Positions 2,998-29,064 of a DNA stretch of 64,000 nucleotides are shown one piece after another. Positions within the stretch are counted from its first letter, which is position 1, and every line of letters starts with the position of its first letter. Source of the DNA: Verrucomicrobiota bacterium. Its GTDB lineage: Bacteria; Verrucomicrobiota; Verrucomicrobiia; Limisphaerales; UBA9464. Where the stretch lies: NCBI GenBank assembly GCA_017309115.1, contig JAFLEF010000009.1:1-64000 (forward strand), given 5' to 3'. A program made the translations under genes and the position numbers. The notes beneath the pieces were generated by a model. That model worked only from the letters and a program-made list of their open reading frames with translations. It did no database searches and had not been told where the DNA came from.

Positions 2998-5028
2998 TCA
3001 CGGCTGCCGCAGACGGTAGAAGCCGTTGGCGGTCGGGGTGAGACGGACGACCCATTGGTCGCCTTCCACCACCGGCGCAACGTTGACCGGTTGCCAGTTT
3101 GCTTCGCCCAGCGCCGGAAGGGATTCCAGCAAGGCGTCGGGAATGGCGGCGGGCCAGCGGAGTTCAAGCGTCGCATTGGCGCCCAGTCCAGCCGTCAGGG
3201 TGGGGGCGATGAGCGGCTTGCAGGCCGCGAGTTCGTTCACGCCCGCCTTGGGTCCGCAGGGACGGATCACCGCATAGCGCACGCGGCTGACAAAGATTTT
3301 GTCGCTGAGCACGAAGCGGGCAGCCGCTTGCGGACCCTGATTCACGCCCAGGAACTTCATGTCGGGAATCTCCCAGTAGGCTTCCTTCCAGGTGTCGGTG
3401 CCTTCGAGAGTGATGTAGGCGCTGTCCGGAACGAACTTCAGCGTCGTGATGCCGTTGGCTTCGGTCTGATACACCTCGGGCTTGAACCGTGCTCCGGCGA
3501 GGGCCGGGTCATCGTAGTACGTGACGCAGATGGCCAGGTTGGCGGCGGGCTGGCTGGACGGTCCGAAGACCTGATCCGTGATGGCGAAGTTGAGGTATTG
3601 ATGGGTGAAGCCAACGGGACCGTCATCACGAGCCGGCCGGATGGCGTTGCGCCGATCGGAGGCCGGACCGGCCTCCGCTTCAATCATCACCTGATCACCC
3701 CCGCTGGAACCGAGGTCGAGGCCCTGTTTGAGTCCTTGTTTGAGATCGAGTTCGGCGTAGTTGCCATAGGTGTCCGTGCAGATGCTCGGATCAGCGAAGC
3801 AATCGGCGAGCGGATCCTGTCCGGCGAGCGGATGGGTTCCGGTGCGCAGGACGGCGAGGTCGAAGCGGGAGACGAAGACTTGGCCGTTCTCGGAGACGAA
3901 CCTCGGTCCGGCCGTGAGCGCGCCCGCATTGACGCCCTTGAGACTCACCGCAGGAACGATCCAGGAGCGCTTGATCCACTCTCCGGTGCCGGTGAGGACC
4001 TGCCGTTGTTCGGCCGGGTAGAAGCCGATGCCGCCGAGGCTATCGGTGGCGTATGCTTCGGGTCCGAACCGCACGTCGAGTCCGGCGAAGGCCGGATCGT
4101 CGTAGAACTCCACACATACTTTGACCGCGCGCGGGTCGTTGCAGGGTTGGCCCAGATAATTGTCGAGAATGCCGAAGTTCAGCAGAGAGCCATTGGGGCG
4201 CACCGCCCGACGTTTGTCCGTAGCGGGTCCGACCTGATCTTCAAACGTGACCGTTTGATCGCCGTCATTGATCACCACCAGGTGGTTGGTGACGCCGGCC
4301 CGGAGATCGAGTCCGACCAGGTTGGTGTTGGGTTCGGGATCACAGGAGTCGGCCGGGGCGAAGAGATTGATGGCTTCGGGTTCGCCGAACGCTCCCTGGG
4401 GTCCGAAGGCGATGGCCCGGATGATCAGGTTGGGCACCTGTTCCAGACGAATCGTGCCGCCGTTGACGCCGCCGCTGGAGGTGTCGCCCTGCGCGCCCTC
4501 TGGCACCGAGCCGACGAAGCGGGTGCCATCGGCGCGCTGACCGTTGGGAATGCGGAACAGAATCCAGTTCCACTTCTTATTGCGGGCCTCGACCGCGACC
4601 GAGCCGCCCACCGGGGCGGTCAATTCCGGGAGGGTGCCGAGGAGGAAGTTAAAGTTACGCGGCGATCCATCGAGATTGAACAAGGCGTCATCCCCGTAGG
4701 CCTGGACGAGAATGTCGATGGTTTCATCGTCGGCCCATTCCCCGAACGAGGAATCGGCCACGTTGAAATAGTTGCCGAGCGCCTTGACACCGCTGAAGCC
4801 ACCAATGGTGATATCGCCGGTGATCTGATCACCACCGCTGAGGACCCTTAGATCCGGAGTCCACGTTTCCGAGGGTGCGGCGAGGGCGTCGCCGGTGACG
4901 TAATAGTGGACGACTTTGTCAGCCTGTCGCGTGGACGGCCAATCGGTGGGACTGGAAGGTCCGGTCTGAGCGAGAGCCCAGAGCGAACTGACGCCGCCCA
5001 GCAAGGCCGCGAAGAGAGTTCGATTCAT
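2998..5028 (-). CDS. Exported protein with two tandem related modules
   Basis: Function not recognised. The protein has 676 residues and begins with a Sec signal peptide (MNRTLFAALLGGVSSLWALAQ). Roughly residues 227-408 and 409-595 are two diverged copies of one module. Both contain a stretch like GPATDKRRAVRP / GPASDRRNAIRP, then VCVEFYDDPAFAG / ICVTYYDDPALAG, and both end in FVSRFDLAVLR / FVSRVRYAVIR. The last 65 residues match a tail module shared with other exported proteins here and end in FYRLRQP. It is probably periplasmic or surface-attached; the modules could be carbohydrate-binding jelly rolls, but that is a guess. I start at 5028, not the longer 5091, because the signal peptide begins there. 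It is transcribed divergently from the sigma factor gene. Confidence 0.8.
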   Translation of the reverse strand: MNRTLFAALLGGVSSLWALAQTGPSSPTDWPSTRQADKVVHYYVTGDALAAPSETWTPDLRVLSGGDQITGDITIGGFSGVKALGNYFNVADSSFGEWADDETIDILVQAYGDDALFNLDGSPRNFNFLLGTLPELTAPVGGSVAVEARNKKWNWILFRIPNGQRADGTRFVGSVPEGAQGDTSSGGVNGGTIRLEQVPNLIIRAIAFGPQGAFGEPEAINLFAPADSCDPEPNTNLVGLDLRAGVTNHLVVINDGDQTVTFEDQVGPATDKRRAVRPNGSLLNFGILDNYLGQPCNDPRAVKVCVEFYDDPAFAGLDVRFGPEAYATDSLGGIGFYPAEQRQVLTGTGEWIKRSWIVPAVSLKGVNAGALTAGPRFVSENGQVFVSRFDLAVLRTGTHPLAGQDPLADCFADPSICTDTYGNYAELDLKQGLKQGLDLGSSGGDQVMIEAEAGPASDRRNAIRPARDDGPVGFTHQYLNFAITDQVFGPSSQPAANLAICVTYYDDPALAGARFKPEVYQTEANGITTLKFVPDSAYITLEGTDTWKEAYWEIPDMKFLGVNQGPQAAARFVLSDKIFVSRVRYAVIRPCGPKAGVNELAACKPLIAPTLTAGLGANATLELRWPAAIPDALLESLPALGEANWQPVNVAPVVEGDQWVVRLTPTANGFYRLRQP

Positions 5029-5289
5029 GGTTGATATGGTTGCCGTTCCCAGCGACGACACGGCGCTCCGGGTCAGGGCGGAGGTCATCACGACGGAAAG
5101 GAGTACGCCTTCAGACCTCTTTGGACCCGAGTGGTTTCAATCTAAATGCGGGTCGGTCTTACTTTTCCGGTTCCGGGTCGCTGGCTTCCGTCCGTGCGGG
5201 ACGTCGGGTTCGGAGGACGGTCGCAGTATCGATTGGAGATTCCCCAAGTTTCCTGTCACCTCCGGTCGGCAATCCACCACGGGCAGGCA

Positions 5290-6885
5290 ATGAGGACGGT
5301 CCGAATCAAGGAACAAAGCTCCGACCAAGAGTTGCTCGAGCAGAGTCGGTCGGGAGATCGCGAAGCGTACGGTGAATTGGTCCGACGCCATCAGAATCTG
5401 GTGTGCGGACTGGCGTTTGCCCATTGCGGCGATCGGATGCGGAGTGAGGACTTGGCGCAGGAAACCTTCGTGGCTGGTTGGCGTCAGTTGCCCCAGCTCC
5501 GGGATCCCAGCCGCTTCAAGAGTTGGCTGTGCGGCATGGTTCGCTTGCGCGCTGCCGGTGCGCGGCGGGAAGCCCGACGAGATCCGACCGCCGGAGCGGA
5601 ATCCTGGGAGGATTGCGCGGAAGCATCCGGGACTGCCTCGACTCCGGCGGCTGAAGTGGTGGCGGCGGAAGAGGGTCGGATGGTGTGGAAGGCCCTGGCC
5701 GAATTGCCCGAGACGTATCGCGAACCGCTGGTTTTGTTTTATCGGGACGGACAATCCGTGGCTCGGGTGGCGCAACACCTCGAGCTTTCGGAGGACGCCA
5801 TCAAGCAACGTCTTGCCCGAGGACGGGAGCTCTTGCGGGGAAGGCTGTCCACCTTGGCCGAAGAGATCCTGGGACGTTCCGGACCCAATCCTGCCTTCAG
5901 TGGCCTGGTGCTGGCGGCGTTACCATTGTCGCTGCCTTCGACCGGTGCAGCGGCGTTGGCGACGGGAAGTGCGGACCAATCCTGGGCGGCGGTGGGCGGA
6001 GGAGCGTGGTTGACCGTTCTTGGGCCGGTATTGGGCTTGCTTGGAGCCTGGGTGGGCATTCGGGCGTCCTTGCAGAATGCCGGATCTGAAGCGGAGCGAC
6101 GTTTGGTGAAACAGTTGTTGGTGACCTGCGCGGTTTTGCTGATCGCCTCAGGCAGCGGGTTGGTGGGGCTCTTCTGGCTGGGGCGAATCCACTGGGGTTG
6201 GAGCCTGGGTCAGTGGGCGGTGGCGGTGGGGGGCTGGTCGCTCTTGGCGATGACTGTATTTCTCGCGGTGGGCATTCGCTGGGAACGTCGCCGTCGGCAC
6301 TTGGTTGCCGTCGAAGAGCGTTCAGGAATGCGGTCAACCGCCCGTCCGGCGGTCCTTTGGCGATATCAATCGAGGCGCCGGTGGTTGGGCTGGCCGCTGG
6401 TGGATGTGCACGTGGGCGGTTCGCGTCGCGGGGTCGCCCGCGGATGGCTGGCCATCGGAGATCTGGCCCTGGGAGGGGTGGCGTTCGGAGGCGTGGCCGT
6501 CGGGGGAATCGCCGTGGGAGGAGTGGCGCTGGGTGGTATTGCTGTGGGCGGGGCCGCGGCGGGTCTTCTGGCCGTGGGTGGAATGGCGTTGGGTTGGGGT
6601 GCGGTGGGTGGACTGGCAGTCGGAGGACTGGCCTTCGGTGGCGCGGCCCTCGCCGTGAAGGCCGCCAGCGGCGGAATGGCCCTGGCCCAGGAAGTGGCCG
6701 TGGGCGGCTGGGCTCAGGCCGCGCATGCCAATGATGCTTGGGCCCGGGAGTGGGTCGCCCAGTCCGGGTTCTTTCGAACCGCCAAAGTGGTCGTCCGCTG
6801 GCTTCCCTTGCTCTCGGTGTTGCCGATGTTGCTGCCGCTTTGGATGACGCGAATGGCGCGCCGATCCAAGGAGCGTTCGGCTTGA
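5290..6885 (+). CDS. ECF sigma factor fused to a membrane domain with pentad repeats
   Basis: Residues about 12-90 form sigma-70 region 2 (DQELLEQSRSGDREAYGELV, then EDLAQETFVAGW). Residues about 130-180 form region 4 with its helix-turn-helix (LPETYREPLVLFYRDG, then VAQHLELSEDAIKQRLARG). So the N terminus should direct RNA polymerase to specific promoters. The remaining 350 residues are unusual for a sigma factor. They hold several hydrophobic segments (around LTVLGPVLGLLGAWVGI, LLIASGSGLVGLFWL and WSLLAMTVFLAVGI), then twelve pentads of the type xAxGG at residues 392-451, then a last hydrophobic helix before a basic tail. This suggests a sigma factor tethered to the membrane, perhaps autoregulated without a separate anti-sigma factor. 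No anti-sigma gene is adjacent. I start at 5290; upstream in-frame sequence to 5146 looks non-coding. Confidence 0.82.
   Translation: MRTVRIKEQSSDQELLEQSRSGDREAYGELVRRHQNLVCGLAFAHCGDRMRSEDLAQETFVAGWRQLPQLRDPSRFKSWLCGMVRLRAAGARREARRDPTAGAESWEDCAEASGTASTPAAEVVAAEEGRMVWKALAELPETYREPLVLFYRDGQSVARVAQHLELSEDAIKQRLARGRELLRGRLSTLAEEILGRSGPNPAFSGLVLAALPLSLPSTGAAALATGSADQSWAAVGGGAWLTVLGPVLGLLGAWVGIRASLQNAGSEAERRLVKQLLVTCAVLLIASGSGLVGLFWLGRIHWGWSLGQWAVAVGGWSLLAMTVFLAVGIRWERRRRHLVAVEERSGMRSTARPAVLWRYQSRRRWLGWPLVDVHVGGSRRGVARGWLAIGDLALGGVAFGGVAVGGIAVGGVALGGIAVGGAAAGLLAVGGMALGWGAVGGLAVGGLAFGGAALAVKAASGGMALAQEVAVGGWAQAAHANDAWAREWVAQSGFFRTAKVVVRWLPLLSVLPMLLPLWMTRMARRSKERSA
6463..6642 (+). repeat. Twelve in-frame 15-base repeats encoding xAxGG pentads
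   Basis: Each unit encodes five residues, such as LALGG, VAFGG, VAVGG and IAVGG, with only small departures (AAAGL, MALGW). The codons vary at third positions, so the pattern is kept at protein level and is not simply recent DNA slippage. A thirteenth degenerate unit follows. Confidence 0.85.
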
Positions 6886-7222
6886 TTGGACGACGAGATT
6901 CTCCTGAGTCACGAATGGCACAAAACCACGGAAGGGGAAACGAGATGAAATCGGGAGCGCTGGCGTCTCGCCGGCCAGTATGAGGACGCGTGAGGCGAAC
7001 CGGTTGAGAGCTGAGAGCTGAACGGTCGGAACGGGGAAGCGGCAAGTGTGGTAGGGCGACACTCTGGAGCCGTTAGTGAGTGTACTGGTGACGCCTCTAT
7101 TCGCCGGGACGCGTACGGCTCCGCGGAGCGTCGCCCCACCGGCTCGGCTCCCGCACTCTCCAAAGTTTCTCCGTGGCCGTTCCAGGATTGGCTGGAGTCC
7201 GGCCGAGGCGTAGCCTGTTGTC
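6886..7222. repeat. Intergenic repeat cluster (R3, heptamers, R1)
   Basis: No gene seen. 6953-6975 is the R3 element GGGAGCGCTGGCGTCTCGCC..., which occurs in the opposite orientation at 10157-10180 and 15660-15683. 7003-7023 has the heptamers GTTGAGA, GCTGAGA and GCTGAAC. 7050-7140 is an R1 copy beginning GGTAGGGCGAC and ending GAGCGTCGCCCCACC. The promoter of the next gene must lie in the last 80 bases. Confidence 0.75.
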
Positions 7223-8497
7223 ATGGTGCGAGCGTGGATGCAGGCAAGTGGGGCGCTGATCGGTGCGGCCTTGAGCTGGATGCAGCTGATGGCAGCTCCG
7301 GACTGGCCGGAGTTTCGGGGACCGACAGGCCAGGGCATTTCCACGGCGACTTCGGTTCCGCTGCAGTGGTCGGCGAACAGCAACGTGGTGTGGAAGGTAG
7401 AAGTGCCGGGCGAGGGCTGGTCGTCGCCGGTGCTTTCCCAGGGCGAGTTGTATCTCACGACCGCGGTTACGCCCTCCAGCGGTGGCGTGCAGCTGCGGGC
7501 GTTGTCGTTTGCGGCCGAGACCGGGAAGCTGCGCTGGGACACGGAAGTGTTCCTCGAGCCGGGGACGGGCGGCGGGATGCATCAGAAGAACTCCAAGGCG
7601 AGTCCGACGCCGGTGGTGTCAGGGGATTGGGTGTACGTTCACTTTGGACATTTGGGCACGGCCGGTTTGGATCGCGCCGGGAAAGTTCACTGGCGGCAAT
7701 CCGAGTTGAAGTATTCCCCGGTGCACGGCAATGGCGGTTCTCCGATTTTGGCGGATGGCGTGCTGTTCTTCAGTTGCGACGGCGGCTCGGGTCCCTTTGC
7801 GGTGGCGCTCGATCCGGAGACGGGGGCGATCCGCTGGCGGGTGGACCGGGAGACGGCGGCGGCCAAAAAGTTTTCCTTCAGTACGGCCCTCTTTCTCACC
7901 AACGGCACCCGCAAGGAAATCATCAGCCCGGGGAGCGGGGCGGTCTTCTCCTACGATCCGGCGACCGGGCGCGAGTGGTGGCGGGTGGCATATGGCAACG
8001 GTTATTCCGTGGTGCCCCGTCCGGTGTTTGCGCACGGCCTGATTTTTGTGGGAACAGGATATGATCGCGCGAGTCTGCTGGCGATTCGTCCCGGAGGTGA
8101 AGGCGATCTGACTGAGTCCAACATTGTCTGGCAGACCGCGCGCAGTGCGCCGAACACGCCGTCTGTGGTGGTGGTGGGCGAACTGATCTTCTTCGTGTCC
8201 GACGGGGGAATTGCCACGTGTGCCGATGCCCGGACCGGAAGGGTCCACTGGAACGAGCGCTTGGAAGGAGATTATTCCGCCTCGCCGGTGTGGGCGGAGG
8301 ATCGTGTGTACTTTTTCAACGAAGCGGGACTGTGCACGGTGGTTCGGTCGGCGCCGAAGTTCGAGGTGCTGGCGAAGAACGATCTGGGTGAGCGTTTGTT
8401 GGCGAGTCCGGCGGTGACGGACGGAGCGTGGTTTATCCGGACGAAGAGTCATTTGTTCCGGATCGGTTCTCCGGCCCCAGTTCGCGGCGCAGAATAA
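7223..8497 (+). CDS. Exported PQQ-like beta-propeller repeat protein
   Basis: A 424-residue protein with a hydrophobic leader (about residues 1-24, ending LMAAP) and a mature start DWPEFRGPTGQGIS, typical of outer-membrane or periplasmic PQQ-like propellers that are abundant in Verrucomicrobia and Planctomycetes. Propeller blades are marked by recurring patterns such as VVWKVEVPGEGWSSPVL, LRWDTEVFLE, IRWRVDRET and VHWNERLEGDYSASPVW. These proteins bear a BamB-like fold and normally lack a PQQ cofactor; their substrate is unknown. Its 3' end overlaps the convergent acetyltransferase gene by 65 bases. Confidence 0.88.
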   Translation: MVRAWMQASGALIGAALSWMQLMAAPDWPEFRGPTGQGISTATSVPLQWSANSNVVWKVEVPGEGWSSPVLSQGELYLTTAVTPSSGGVQLRALSFAAETGKLRWDTEVFLEPGTGGGMHQKNSKASPTPVVSGDWVYVHFGHLGTAGLDRAGKVHWRQSELKYSPVHGNGGSPILADGVLFFSCDGGSGPFAVALDPETGAIRWRVDRETAAAKKFSFSTALFLTNGTRKEIISPGSGAVFSYDPATGREWWRVAYGNGYSVVPRPVFAHGLIFVGTGYDRASLLAIRPGGEGDLTESNIVWQTARSAPNTPSVVVVGELIFFVSDGGIATCADARTGRVHWNERLEGDYSASPVWAEDRVYFFNEAGLCTVVRSAPKFEVLAKNDLGERLLASPAVTDGAWFIRTKSHLFRIGSPAPVRGAE

Positions 8498-25501: not shown

Positions 25502-25756
25502 TTGTTCGCCGAAGCGCAGCCGATTCAGAACCAGTTCGCCGGCTTGCGAGACCCCAAGGCTGAATACGAAGAGGCGGATGCATACGTCATCGCGTTGGCG
25601 AAATTGCGTGGCGGGATTGTGGTGACTCAGGAAACGCCCGCGGCCGAGAAGCGGAATCCGAAGCGCACGCATTTCATTCCGGATGTTTGCCGGGAGTTGG
25701 GTATTGCGTGCATCAGCCTAATCGGCTTGATGCGCCGCGAGGGTTGGAAGTTTTGA
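25502..25756 (+). pseudogene. 3' fragment of a DUF4411 PIN-like toxin gene
   Basis: Only the C-terminal half of the family is present. EADAYVIALAK, GGIVVTQETPA, the pattern PKRTHFIPDVCRELGI and a tail INLxxLMRREGWKF-like stretch (ISLIGLMRREGWKF here) fit DUF4411, PIN-fold proteins usually encoded beside an XRE/ImmA-IrrE type partner. The upstream in-frame sequence meets a stop codon at 25481-25483, and no start or N-terminal PIN motif (catalytic aspartate near residue 5) is found. So the gene has lost its 5' half and is probably inactive. Its former partner is not recognisable upstream. This points to a decayed toxin-antitoxin or defence locus. Confidence 0.68.
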
Positions 25757-26274: not shown

Positions 26275-27057
26275 ATGAGCGACAATTCTAAGATCGAATG
26301 GACGGATGCCACGTGGAATCCAGTACGCGGCTGTACGAAGGTCAGCCCTGGCTGTTCGCATTGCTATGCCGAGACGTTCGCAGAGCGGTTTCGAGGCGTT
26401 CCCGATCACCCCTTCGAGTTCGGTTTCGATCTGCGGCTTGTGCCGGAGAAGCTGGGCGACCCGCTTCGCTGGTCCAAGCCCAAGAAGATTTTCGTCAACT
26501 CGATGAGCGACCTTTTCCACGAGGGCGTTTCCGACGAATACATCGAAAAAATCTGCCGGGTGATGTTGGCGGCGAACTGGCACACCTACCAAATTCTCAC
26601 CAAGCGGGCCGACCGGATGGCGGCACTGCTGCAAGGCAAGTTGCGTAAAGCGGCAAATGCGGCGCACATCTGGTGGGGCGTGAGCGTGGAGAATCGCAAA
26701 CACGGGTTGCCGCGCATTGAGAAACTGCGGAGCGCCAAGCCAACGGTGGCTTTTCTCTCGGTTGAACCACTGCTGGAAGATCTGGGTACTTTTAACCTTC
26801 ACGGAATTCAATGGGTGATTGTGGGTGGAGAGAGCGGCCCTGGTGCGCGGCCAATGGAAGCCGAGTGGGTGCGGAACATTCGCGATCAATGCCAGAAGGC
26901 TGGCTCAGCGTTCTTTTTCAAACAATGGGGTGGCGTTCGCAAGAGCGAGACGGGACGGAGGCTCGACGGAAGGACATACGATGAATTTCCGGAGCCTTCC
27001 ATCTCTCCGAATCCGTCATCTGCAGACTTGCTGGCGCTTAGGGAGGAGTTTGCCTAA
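26275..27057 (+). CDS. DUF5131 / phage Gp37-Gp68 family three-cysteine protein
   Basis: A 260-residue protein. The N terminus SKIEWTDATWNPVRGCTKVS, then PGCSHCYAE, contains Cys20, Cys27 and Cys30. This three-cysteine cluster defines the family and resembles a radical-SAM-type iron-sulfur site. Other family motifs are KPKKIFVNSMSDLFHE, WHTYQILTKRADRM, IWWGVSVEN, FLSVEPLLEDL, WVIVGGESGPGARPM and FFFKQWGG. Homologues occur in phages and in bacterial defence-rich regions; the reaction is unknown, though chemistry on nucleic acid is plausible. It is the first gene of a tight operon: three bases separate its stop from the TcmP start. TcmP-type proteins are named as partners of three-Cys-motif proteins. 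Confidence 0.9.
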   Translation: MSDNSKIEWTDATWNPVRGCTKVSPGCSHCYAETFAERFRGVPDHPFEFGFDLRLVPEKLGDPLRWSKPKKIFVNSMSDLFHEGVSDEYIEKICRVMLAANWHTYQILTKRADRMAALLQGKLRKAANAAHIWWGVSVENRKHGLPRIEKLRSAKPTVAFLSVEPLLEDLGTFNLHGIQWVIVGGESGPGARPMEAEWVRNIRDQCQKAGSAFFFKQWGGVRKSETGRRLDGRTYDEFPEPSISPNPSSADLLALREEFA

Positions 27058-27060
27058 CAA

Positions 27061-28143
27061 ATGCATGCGAACGATTTTCACGAAAAGCCGTTCGACGAAG
27101 GAACGCTAACCAAGCTCAGGATTTTTGAGCTCTACGCACGCGAATGGCTTCCAGTCTTTCTCTCCGCAGAGAGGCCTCGGCTGCCTAAAATTCATCTATT
27201 CGACTTTTTCGCCGGACCAGGTACGGACTCGTCAGGTCAGCTAGGTAGCCCACTTCGATTGCTGCGACAGTTAAAGCACTATCAAGAACGCGGAGGATTG
27301 AAGAGGGCCTGCGTTGAAGTTCACCTGTTTGACGAATCGAAAGAAAAGACAAGCCAGCTGAAGGAGAACATCGCTACCCATGGCCTGCAGTTGCCAGACT
27401 TAACGTTCGACGTAAGGCCGCTCGCCTTCAGCCAAGCATTCCGGAACTGCGAGAGAATTTTGGAGGACCCGGAGGCAGCCAAGCTGGTGTTCATAGATCA
27501 GTTTGGTGTGGACCATGTGACCCCGGCGGTGTTTCGCACCCTCGTTAGCTCTCCAATCTGCGATTTCCTGTTCTTCCTTTCATCCTCAACGCTCTATCGA
27601 TTTCATGATATCCCAGCAATTAAACAGAAAATTGCGCGCCCAGATGATTACTTCCACGTACACCGCGCGGCGCTTGATTACTATCGAAGTCTCCTGCCTT
27701 CCGGGATGAGGTACTTCCTCGCTCCGTTTTCCATCAAGAAAGGCGCAAACATTTATGGCCTCATTTTCGGATCCGCTCATCCGCTTGGGATCGACAAATT
27801 CCTTCAGGTGGCTTGGCAAAGCGACGAAATCAGCGGGGAAGCTGATTTCGATATAAATCGTGAAAACATCCGCCCCGGCGAGATGCTGCTGGCTTTTGAG
27901 GAAATGCGACCGAGCAAGATTTCCGCGTTTGACCGCGAACTTGAACATTTGTTACGCGCTGGTCTTCTGGTCGATGAATTTGACGTGATGCAGGTCTGCT
28001 TTGAACACGGTGTGAAACGGCAACATGCGGAACCTGTCATGGCAAAGCTGAAACGAGAAGGCGTTATTGACTTGGATTTCAGAGTCCCTGACGTCCGGAG
28101 ATCTTTGCCAAGGCCTATTCGCCACCATCGCCGAGGACCTTAA
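27061..28143 (+). CDS. Three-Cys-motif partner protein TcmP-like
   Basis: A 360-residue protein. The N-terminal half has Rossmann methyltransferase-like landmarks: HLFDFFAGPG (residues 45-54, similar to the SAM-binding loop), VEVHLFDESKEK (about 86-96, acidic end of strand 2) and KLVFIDQFGVDHVTP (about 141-155, where a catalytic motif would sit). The C-terminal third looks like a winged-helix or other helical domain. TcmP-like proteins are regularly found next to DUF5131 proteins; their activity is not established. Methyl transfer or SAM binding is my inference. Bases and codons are visibly more AT-rich than in neighbours, a sign of horizontal transfer. The Mrr gene follows after 12 bases. 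Confidence 0.85.
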   Translation: MHANDFHEKPFDEGTLTKLRIFELYAREWLPVFLSAERPRLPKIHLFDFFAGPGTDSSGQLGSPLRLLRQLKHYQERGGLKRACVEVHLFDESKEKTSQLKENIATHGLQLPDLTFDVRPLAFSQAFRNCERILEDPEAAKLVFIDQFGVDHVTPAVFRTLVSSPICDFLFFLSSSTLYRFHDIPAIKQKIARPDDYFHVHRAALDYYRSLLPSGMRYFLAPFSIKKGANIYGLIFGSAHPLGIDKFLQVAWQSDEISGEADFDINRENIRPGEMLLAFEEMRPSKISAFDRELEHLLRAGLLVDEFDVMQVCFEHGVKRQHAEPVMAKLKREGVIDLDFRVPDVRRSLPRPIRHHRRGP

Positions 28144-28155
28144 GCGATAACTGCC

Positions 28156-29064
28156 ATGCCTGTTCCGGAATTTGAAGAGATCAAAGCGCCCCTCCTCCAA
28201 TACTTCGCCGACGGCCAACCGCACCGGATGGCCGACACGTTTGAGGCGCTGGGAGATCATTTTGGCCTGAGCCCCGAGGAGCGTTCGGAACTGCTGCCGA
28301 GTGGAACCCAGGCGCGATGGCACAATCGAGCCAGCTGGGCCTGCTACGATCTTTACCGGGCCGGTCTTCTGGATCGGCCGCGTCGAGGGACCTATCAGAT
28401 CACTCCACTCGGTCGGGAGATTGCGGCGCAAAAACCGTCGATGATTGATCGAGATTACTTGATGAAGTTTGAGAGCTTTCGAAAGTGGCTCGAGAAACGG
28501 GTGGACCCGGTGGTTGCTCCCGTTGTTCCCCCGGATCCCACACAGAATCCTCCCATTGAAATCATCGAGCGAGCCCACCGGCATCTGACCGAACGCCTCC
28601 GCTCCGAGATCCTTCAATTGGTCTCGAAGATGAATCCCATTCGTTTCGAGCGGCTCGTCTTGGATCTCCTCCTGGCAATGGGCTACGGCGGATCGCGCGA
28701 GGAGGCGGCGCAGATGACCAAGACCTCCAACGACGAAGGCATCGACGGCGTGATCAACGAGGACCGCCTGGGCTTGGACGTCATCTATATCCAGGCGAAA
28801 CGGTGGCAGAACACCGTCGGCAGGAAGGAGATTCAAAGCTTCGTCGGGGCCTTGGCCGGACAACAGGCGACCAAGGGCATTTTCATCACCACGAGCGACT
28901 TCGCCAATACGGCCACAGAGTATGTCCGCAAACTGCAATCCAAGGTCATCCTTATCAACGGCGATCGGCTGGCTTACCTCATGATCCGCCACGACATCGG
29001 AGTGTCGAAGGAGCACTCATTCGAGATCAAACGCATCGATAGTGACTACTTTGAGGAGGAGTAG
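28156..29064 (+). CDS. Mrr-type restriction endonuclease
   Basis: A 302-residue protein with two domains. Residues 1-95 are an Mrr N-terminal winged helix (PEFEEIKAPLLQYFADGQPH, WACYDLYRAGLLDRPRRGTY, then ITPLGRE). Residues about 150-285 are the PD-(D/E)xK nuclease: FERLVLDLLLAMGYGG, NDEGIDGVI (acidic residues at 193-197) and DVIYIQAKRW, with the QAK (213-215) typical of Mrr. GIFITTSDFANTATEYV is the usual follow-on helix. Mrr enzymes cut methylated or otherwise modified DNA in the cytoplasm. Here it is the third gene of the DUF5131-TcmP operon, which suggests that the cassette modifies and cuts, or senses and cuts, DNA. No key residue is missing. Confidence 0.92.
   Translation: MPVPEFEEIKAPLLQYFADGQPHRMADTFEALGDHFGLSPEERSELLPSGTQARWHNRASWACYDLYRAGLLDRPRRGTYQITPLGREIAAQKPSMIDRDYLMKFESFRKWLEKRVDPVVAPVVPPDPTQNPPIEIIERAHRHLTERLRSEILQLVSKMNPIRFERLVLDLLLAMGYGGSREEAAQMTKTSNDEGIDGVINEDRLGLDVIYIQAKRWQNTVGRKEIQSFVGALAGQQATKGIFITTSDFANTATEYVRKLQSKVILINGDRLAYLMIRHDIGVSKEHSFEIKRIDSDYFEEE

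What the first reader, a model, noticed from the sequence alone, without database searches (positions are those of the whole stretch)
26275..29064. DUF5131 + TcmP-like + Mrr operon: candidate undescribed defence system
Three genes, with gaps of 3 and 12 bases, join a three-cysteine (possibly iron-sulfur or radical-SAM-like) DUF5131 protein, its regular partner TcmP with Rossmann/methyltransferase-like motifs, and an intact Mrr-type nuclease with winged-helix domain. A modifier pair plus a modification-dependent nuclease would be a logical self/non-self system: the pair could alter host DNA or RNA, or sense altered nucleic acid, while Mrr cuts. The setting is accessory: remnants of a toxin and perhaps a type I restriction gene lie directly upstream. 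That the two-gene pair is recurrent is family knowledge; that Mrr belongs to it is inference from this locus.
Basis: partly seen in the sequence, partly recalled or inferred. Interest (0 to 1): 0.85.

Follow-up and report, generated by a model that had tools for sequence, protein, structure and literature searches.

The report
Mobile radical-SAM/methyltransferase pair beside restriction gene
Two genes that nearly always travel together, predicted to be a radical enzyme and a methyltransferase-like partner that act on nucleic acid, sit here next to an ordinary restriction-nuclease gene that, as far as could be counted, is a chance neighbour and not a third part of the system.

Summary
DUF5131-TcmP is a real recurrent pair: of 71 related loci, 61 have DUF5131 beside TcmP, 5 another radical-SAM gene, and 4 of the other 5 run off a contig end. 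PADLOC lists it as candidate PDC-M30, unvalidated.

New here: DUF5131 models closest to spore photoproduct lyase with CX6CX2C, and a radical-SAM relative replaces it in some loci. TcmP models closest to the methyltransferase RlmJ, with DQxG for DPPY. DUF5131 copies without TcmP often lie near C5-cytosine methylases. Best reading: a mobile two-enzyme nucleic-acid modification module used in phage conflict, substrate unknown; Mrr is incidental.

The parts
26275..27057 (+). DUF5131 (phage Gp37/Gp68 family; PADLOC PDC-M30B): predicted to work like a spore-photoproduct-lyase-type radical SAM enzyme
26332..26364 (+). CX6CX2C motif (Cys20, Cys27, Cys30), predicted [4Fe-4S] ligands
   Evidence: three Cys in 69 of 69 aligned proteins; aligns with the Cys motif of the alternative radical-SAM partner with a 3-residue insertion
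27061..28143 (+). TcmP (three-Cys-motif partner; PADLOC PDC-M30A): class I SAM-methyltransferase fold plus C-terminal winged-helix-like region
27868..28065 (+). C-terminal helical part of TcmP (about residues 270-335), winged-helix-like, possibly DNA binding
   Evidence: only a sub-threshold match to GMT-wHTH (E 0.049); helices 285-299, 306-315, 320-332 in the model; inference
28156..29064 (+). Mrr-type (type IV) restriction endonuclease, intact; judged an incidental neighbour
   Evidence: PF04471 E 4.6e-38 and PF14338 E 1e-28; PADLOC mREase_IV E 2.2e-86; no Mrr relative in 71 related pair loci
25502..25756 (+). C-terminal remnant of a DUF4411 (PIN-like toxin) gene, its 5' part missing
   Evidence: PF14367 positions 97-159 of 159, E 2.9e-16

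Best explanation
The locus is a mobile two-gene module, DUF5131 plus TcmP, followed by an unrelated type IV restriction gene (Mrr). DUF5131 probably works like a radical-SAM enzyme of the spore-photoproduct-lyase type (from model and profile, not biochemistry): three invariant cysteines would hold a [4Fe-4S] cluster that cleaves SAM to make a 5'-deoxyadenosyl radical. TcmP has a SAM-binding Rossmann fold nearest to the rRNA adenine methyltransferase RlmJ, with DQxG in place of DPPY and a winged-helix-like tail. Inferred: the two act together on a base of DNA or RNA, TcmP binding, methylating or presenting the base and DUF5131 carrying out a radical step on it, and the change serves phage-host conflict (defence by a host, or exclusion by a resident prophage). 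Mrr would work on its own as an ordinary modification-dependent nuclease.
Against: No biochemical or phage data. Foldseek gave no PDB match to DUF5131 at E 0.001 or better; spore photoproduct lyase is first (1.7e-3), but unrelated TIM barrels follow closely (from 7.9e-3). The cysteine motif is not the canonical one. TcmP lacks DPPY, so it may not methylate. PF02384 methylases lie within 10 kb of TcmP in 6 of 29 genomes against 0.75 expected, but only 1 of those 6 (G229) is a DUF5131-type locus, so that enrichment does not speak for the window's type. The immediate-neighbour scan has no control set. A LexA-like site stands upstream of the pair in 3 of 71 loci against 0.43 expected, which favours repair. 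The P. aeruginosa figure is a correlation; the passages I saw show no correction for other systems.
Confidence: 0.5

Rival explanations
1. One reading: a three-gene self/non-self system in which DUF5131-TcmP modifies or senses nucleic acid and Mrr cuts.
For: Gaps of 3 and 12 bases, same strand, no promoter found between TcmP and Mrr; Mrr proteins are modification-dependent nucleases (recalled family knowledge).
Against: No Mrr relative in 71 related loci; only the window among the TcmP genomes of the phylum sample; 0 of 29 Mrr-relative loci with either partner in held flanks of up to 1.5 kb. Third-position G+C differs (TcmP 0.56, Mrr 0.72). One hit against 0.12 expected is not informative because the window was chosen for it.
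Confidence: 0.05
2. A DNA-repair pair: DUF5131 reverses a base lesion as spore photoproduct lyase does, TcmP recognises the lesion or carries the winged helix; not a defence system.
For: Spore photoproduct lyase is the closest solved structure; a LexA gene is divergent to the pair in L046; a site within one mismatch of TGTTC-N4-GAACA (LexA motif of this phylum, recalled, no call) stands upstream of the pair in L040, L041 and, exact, L043: 3 of 71 loci, 0.43 expected (Poisson about 0.01 by hand).
Against: No such site at up to 3 mismatches in the 200 bases upstream of the window's pair, and none within one mismatch in the other 68 loci (2 of the 71 have short upstream stretches); Peptidase_S24 in only 4 of 129 immediate neighbours. 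Placement in a phage immunity region and association with DNA methylases fit modification better.
Confidence: 0.2
3. An RNA-modifying pair (rRNA, tRNA or phage RNA), like the radical-SAM plus methyltransferase steps of wybutosine synthesis (that pathway is recalled).
For: TcmP is closest in fold to RlmJ, with tRNA enzymes Trm1 and TYW4 also high; RlmJ K18 and D164 are essential (PMC3814359 passages) and K18 and D146 are kept in TcmP (that these residues correspond is my inference).
Against: DUF5131 without TcmP goes with C5-cytosine DNA methylases; TcmP has a winged-helix-like tail; small-molecule methyltransferases score as high as Trm1.
Confidence: 0.2
4. TcmP is a non-catalytic SAM- or nucleic-acid-sensing subunit, and DUF5131 is the toxic or modifying effector it controls.
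For: Motif IV is DQxG (Q147 in 70 of 71, P in 1) instead of DPPY; TcmP pairs with two different radical-SAM types.
Against: SAM-site residues D48, G52, G54 are invariant and position 91 is D or E in all 71, as expected of a working cofactor site.
Confidence: 0.2

Closest known systems
PADLOC phage defence candidate PDC-M30 (and PDC-M41, which shares the B subunit family)
   Same: Both proteins of the pair match: PDC-M30A E 2.4e-101 and PDC-M30B E 1.3e-101; DUF5131 matches PDC-M41B equally (E 2.8e-101).
   Different: The window's Mrr matched no PDC-M30 model. No PADLOC model matches the two alternative radical-SAM partners tested, L060 and L079. No mechanism for the candidate was given in anything I saw.
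Radical SAM mobile pair proteins A and B (TIGR04471, TIGR04470) and PA0069-family radical SAM proteins (NF033668)
   Same: DUF5131 is related to A (74.2 bits); the alternative TcmP partner is nearest to PA0069 (77.5, 50 and 84.8 bits) and also matches B (51.3, 38 and 52.3 bits) in L060, L079, L097.
   Different: All far below the curated cut-offs (355 for A, 410 for B, 360 for PA0069).
Spore photoproduct lyase (SplB)
   Different: About 12% identity; CX6CX2C instead of the canonical CX3CX2C.
RlmJ 23S rRNA m6A methyltransferase
   Different: 12% identity; DQxG for DPPY; extra C-terminal region.
Mrr type IV restriction endonuclease
   Same: Mrr_N plus Mrr_cat with D and QxK; PADLOC mREase_IV.
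   Different: Nothing unusual seen; nearest relative in the phylum sample 64% identical, without the pair in its held flanks.

Membership tests
PDC-M30 (PADLOC candidate) | A subunit (TcmP) profile match | tested here: met
   E 2.4e-101
PDC-M30 (PADLOC candidate) | B subunit (DUF5131) profile match, adjacent gene | tested here: met
   E 1.3e-101, 3-base gap
PDC-M30 (PADLOC candidate) | anti-phage activity | not testable with these tools
   needs plating experiments
Radical SAM superfamily (for DUF5131) | barrel fold as in solved radical-SAM enzymes | tested here: met
Radical SAM superfamily (for DUF5131) | canonical CX3CX2C cluster motif | tested here: not met
   CX6CX2C in 68 of 69 by pattern, the 69th not matched by the pattern; three Cys in 69 of 69. 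Other spacings exist in the superfamily (recalled), so I say it works like one and is a divergent relative, not a filed member
Radical SAM superfamily (for DUF5131) | [4Fe-4S] cluster and SAM cleavage | not testable with these tools
   needs purified protein
TIGR04474 TcmP | score above curated cut-off | tested here: met
   126.7 bits against 53
DPPY-type N6-adenine methyltransferase (for TcmP) | class I Rossmann fold with SAM motif I | tested here: met
DPPY-type N6-adenine methyltransferase (for TcmP) | D/N-P-P-Y/F motif IV | tested here: not met
   DQxG: D 71 of 71, Q 70 of 71, G 71 of 71
Mrr type IV restriction endonuclease | Mrr_N winged helix plus Mrr_cat with D and QxK | tested here: met
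Mrr type IV restriction endonuclease | cutting of modified DNA only | not testable with these tools
   needs assay
Three-gene DUF5131-TcmP-Mrr system (reader) | recurrence of Mrr as neighbour of the pair | tested here: not met
   0 of 71 loci, 61 of which hold at least 1 kb 3' of the pair; window only

The most novel reading that the evidence does not exclude
TcmP plus a radical-SAM partner is a mobile base-hypermodification module in which a methyltransferase-like enzyme sets up a base and either of two interchangeable radical-SAM types (DUF5131 with CX6CX2C, or a PA0069/mobile-pair-B-like protein) completes the change; DUF5131 does the same with true C5-cytosine methylases when TcmP is absent. 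This would be a radical-chemistry route to nucleic-acid modification in phage-host conflict, with a wider set of partners than the present candidate PDC-M30 covers.
Probability: 0.3. Interest if true: 0.85.

Novelty: new member of a known kind. Interest (0 to 1): 0.5.

Why it matters
The locus itself is a further PDC-M30 pair beside an ordinary restriction gene. What matters is the likely identity of its two enzymes: if a spore-photoproduct-lyase-like radical enzyme and an RlmJ-like methyltransferase act jointly on nucleic acid, the substrate can be found by one mass-spectrometry comparison, and a defence candidate without a mechanism becomes directly testable. It also removes a false lead: Mrr need not be in the constructs.

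Tried and rejected
Mrr as system component: tested in five ways and rejected. Limits: many genomes are fragmented, so genes on different contigs could be neighbours; only some first-look candidates were scored in some genomes (for example 6 of 12 in G000); the Mrr profile (32 sequences, the window's own in it twice) may miss remote nucleases; one search shows only the first 25 of 139 families, so Pfam was not used to count Mrr.

SOS/LexA idea: suggested by LexA beside L046 and one DNA_pol3_alpha hit among neighbours whose gene I did not identify. The large gene I suspected in L033 is a helicase and that in L038 phosphomannomutase-like. A first look at palindromes in 24 loci did not seem to show a pattern; on checking, a count over 71 loci found a recalled LexA motif upstream in 3 against 0.43 expected, and none in the window. 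So it is kept as a rival, raised from 0.17 to 0.2 for that reason, and is not the main reading.

Sequence searches of solved structures with both profiles gave only chance matches. TcmP by tblastn found nothing in phage records, although a profile finds it in Gordonia phage Jablanski: a limit of single-sequence search. A single-sequence scan of viral contigs found none, the alignment scan 5.

Choices that affect counts: 34 of the listed DUF5131 places (176 bits or more) were taken as full length and the lower-scoring rows dropped; the 7-kb limit and the 10-kb limit were set after seeing the positions (at 4 kb 5 of 16, 0.08 expected; at 10 kb 6 of 16, 0.20 expected); the match in G134 is weak and partial (E 9.6e-9); among 18 TcmP-paired copies 1 (G024) lies within 7 kb of a C5 methylase. 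Match counts used as densities count split matches separately. The 29 genomes are those over the TIGR04474 cut-off; the 4 weaker ones were left out. Two of the 7 alternative partners in the phylum set score low (L026 58 bits, L029 64 bits). One search covered 29 of the 30 genomes named to it (L085 not held), out of 66 loci; its places were not mapped to the loci, and the counts rest.

Literature: DUF5131 in 0 papers; PDC-M30 in 2; TcmP, mobile-pair and Gp37/Gp68 terms; radical SAM with anti-phage and spore photoproduct lyase. The library holds open-licence papers only, so absence is not proof. Papers seen: PMC12445080, PMC10855318, PMC11878078, PMC12429752, PMC10853773 and PMC3814359 as passages; all others as search listings.

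Full report
Observation. The three genes are present at the stated coordinates, intact, on one strand, with gaps of 3 and 12 bases. They are DUF5131 (PF07505), TcmP (TIGR04474) and an Mrr endonuclease with Mrr_N and Mrr_cat. Upstream is a C-terminal remnant of a DUF4411 gene; a type I restriction remnant was not confirmed. G+C is 0.570, 0.513 and 0.576 for the three genes against 0.619 for the window, and third-position G+C 0.67, 0.56 and 0.72: all look acquired, not clearly in one piece. Nearby genes are ordinary chromosomal ones: DUF1501, a spermine-synthase-domain protein, a GH92 glycosidase, PSCyt/PSD1 proteins.

Is the pair real? Yes. In a sample of 387 genomes of the phylum, TcmP occurs in 33 (29 over the cut-off). 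In the 30 loci held, DUF5131 is adjacent in 18, another radical-SAM gene in 7, and 5 have no partner in the held stretch. A scan of genome contigs gave 66 loci and viral contigs 5, by record title from Verrucomicrobia, Bacteroidetes, Spirochaetes, Hydrogenedentota, Armatimonadota and others. Of these 71, 61 have DUF5131 beside TcmP, 5 the other radical-SAM gene, 4 are cut by a contig end and 1 (L087) has no partner. Gene order and strand differ between loci, so the pairing is kept although the arrangement is not. L088 and L099 are copies, and some of the 71 also occur in the phylum sample, so the two sets should not be added. The pair is PADLOC's candidate PDC-M30.

Is Mrr part of it? The evidence is against. 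A single-sequence search and then a profile of 32 Mrr sequences found no match in the 71 loci; 61 of the 71 hold at least 1 kb 3' of the pair. In the 33 TcmP genomes there are 29 Mrr_cat matches, and only the window's lies near TcmP. Relatives of the window's Mrr occur in 86 of 387 genomes, again only the window's near TcmP. None of 29 loci around Mrr relatives holds DUF5131, TcmP or the alternative partner in held flanks of up to 1.5 kb. About 0.12 Mrr genes are expected within 10 kb of TcmP in 29 of these genomes by density, so one, in a window picked for that reason, carries no weight. Fragmented assemblies are a caveat. Short operon-like spacing shows only that Mrr may be read from the same transcript.

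Where the pair goes. Gordonia phage Jablanski has DUF5131 and TcmP convergent between integrases and the immunity repressor. A P. aeruginosa plasmid has integrase-DUF5131-TcmP. Leptospira biflexa p74 has a type ISP restriction gene overlapping TcmP, then DUF5131. A Streptomyces plasmid has the convergent form. Immediate neighbours in the 71 loci include ResIII 5, HSDR_N 4, Methylase_S 3 and Eco57I 3 of 129 genes, without a control set. PF02384 methylases lie within 10 kb of TcmP in 6 of 29 genomes, 0.75 expected, P about 1e-4, but by partner type this is 1 of 18 DUF5131 loci and 5 of the other 11; so restriction linkage is shown for the other loci, not for the window's type. A recalled LexA motif stands upstream in 3 of 71 loci, 0.43 expected, not in the window. 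The window's DUF5131 has tblastn matches in 405 of 72,556 plasmid and 161 of 50,697 phage records.

DUF5131 without TcmP. Of 34 full-length copies in the 387 genomes, 16 are not TcmP-paired. Six of the 16 lie within 7 kb of a C5-cytosine DNA methylase, 0.14 expected, against 1 of 18 paired copies. One of the six is in the window's own genome (L138), with a helicase-like gene of phage families also in the stretch. A Burkholderia plasmid has a cytosine methylase gene overlapping DUF5131 by 4 bases. So DUF5131 often keeps company with a methyltransferase-fold protein either way. I found no statement of this in the papers searched.

Mechanism. Shown: tight pairing, conserved residues, partner replacement, phage and plasmid carriage; predicted with good confidence: the folds. 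Inferred: a [4Fe-4S] radical enzyme, joint action with TcmP on nucleic acid, use in phage-host conflict. The substrate (DNA or RNA), the change made, and whether the effect is protective marking, damage to phage nucleic acid or sensing, are open. I put about one half on the broad reading, 0.2 each on an RNA substrate, on repair and on a non-catalytic TcmP, and 0.05 on the three-gene model; these readings overlap in part.

Verdict. The three-gene system is not supported; the pair is a known but unexplained defence candidate, and the useful result is what its two enzymes probably are.

Noticed in passing
L138 (G000:C24:197000-207000, window's own genome), DUF5131 4508-5506, C5 methylase 6615-7949: A second DUF5131 without TcmP, near a C5-cytosine DNA methylase; the same association is seen in 6 of 16 TcmP-less copies.
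   Followed up: yes
L060, L068, L078, L079, L097 (and L014, L016, L017, L026-L029): DUF5131 is replaced beside TcmP by another radical-SAM protein; the ones tested resemble PA0069 and mobile pair B families (L060, L079, L097) and have no PADLOC model (L060, L079).
   Followed up: yes
L137 3992-5861 (Gordonia phage Jablanski): DUF5131 and TcmP lie convergent between integrases and the immunity repressor, as if part of superinfection exclusion.
   Followed up: partly
L083 and L085 (Flavobacterium/Flavobacteriaceae): Two TcmP-like genes, on opposite strands, flank one DUF5131 gene.
   Followed up: no
L043, L041, L040 upstream of the pair; L046 8467-9135: LexA-like sites (motif recalled; exact in L043) upstream of the pair in three loci and a LexA gene divergent to it in a fourth: possible DNA-damage control in some lineages.
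   Followed up: partly
L042 7817-8953: A reverse transcriptase gene (RVT_1) lies directly upstream of the pair.
   Followed up: no
window 25502-25756: C-terminal remnant of a DUF4411 toxin-like gene.
   Followed up: partly
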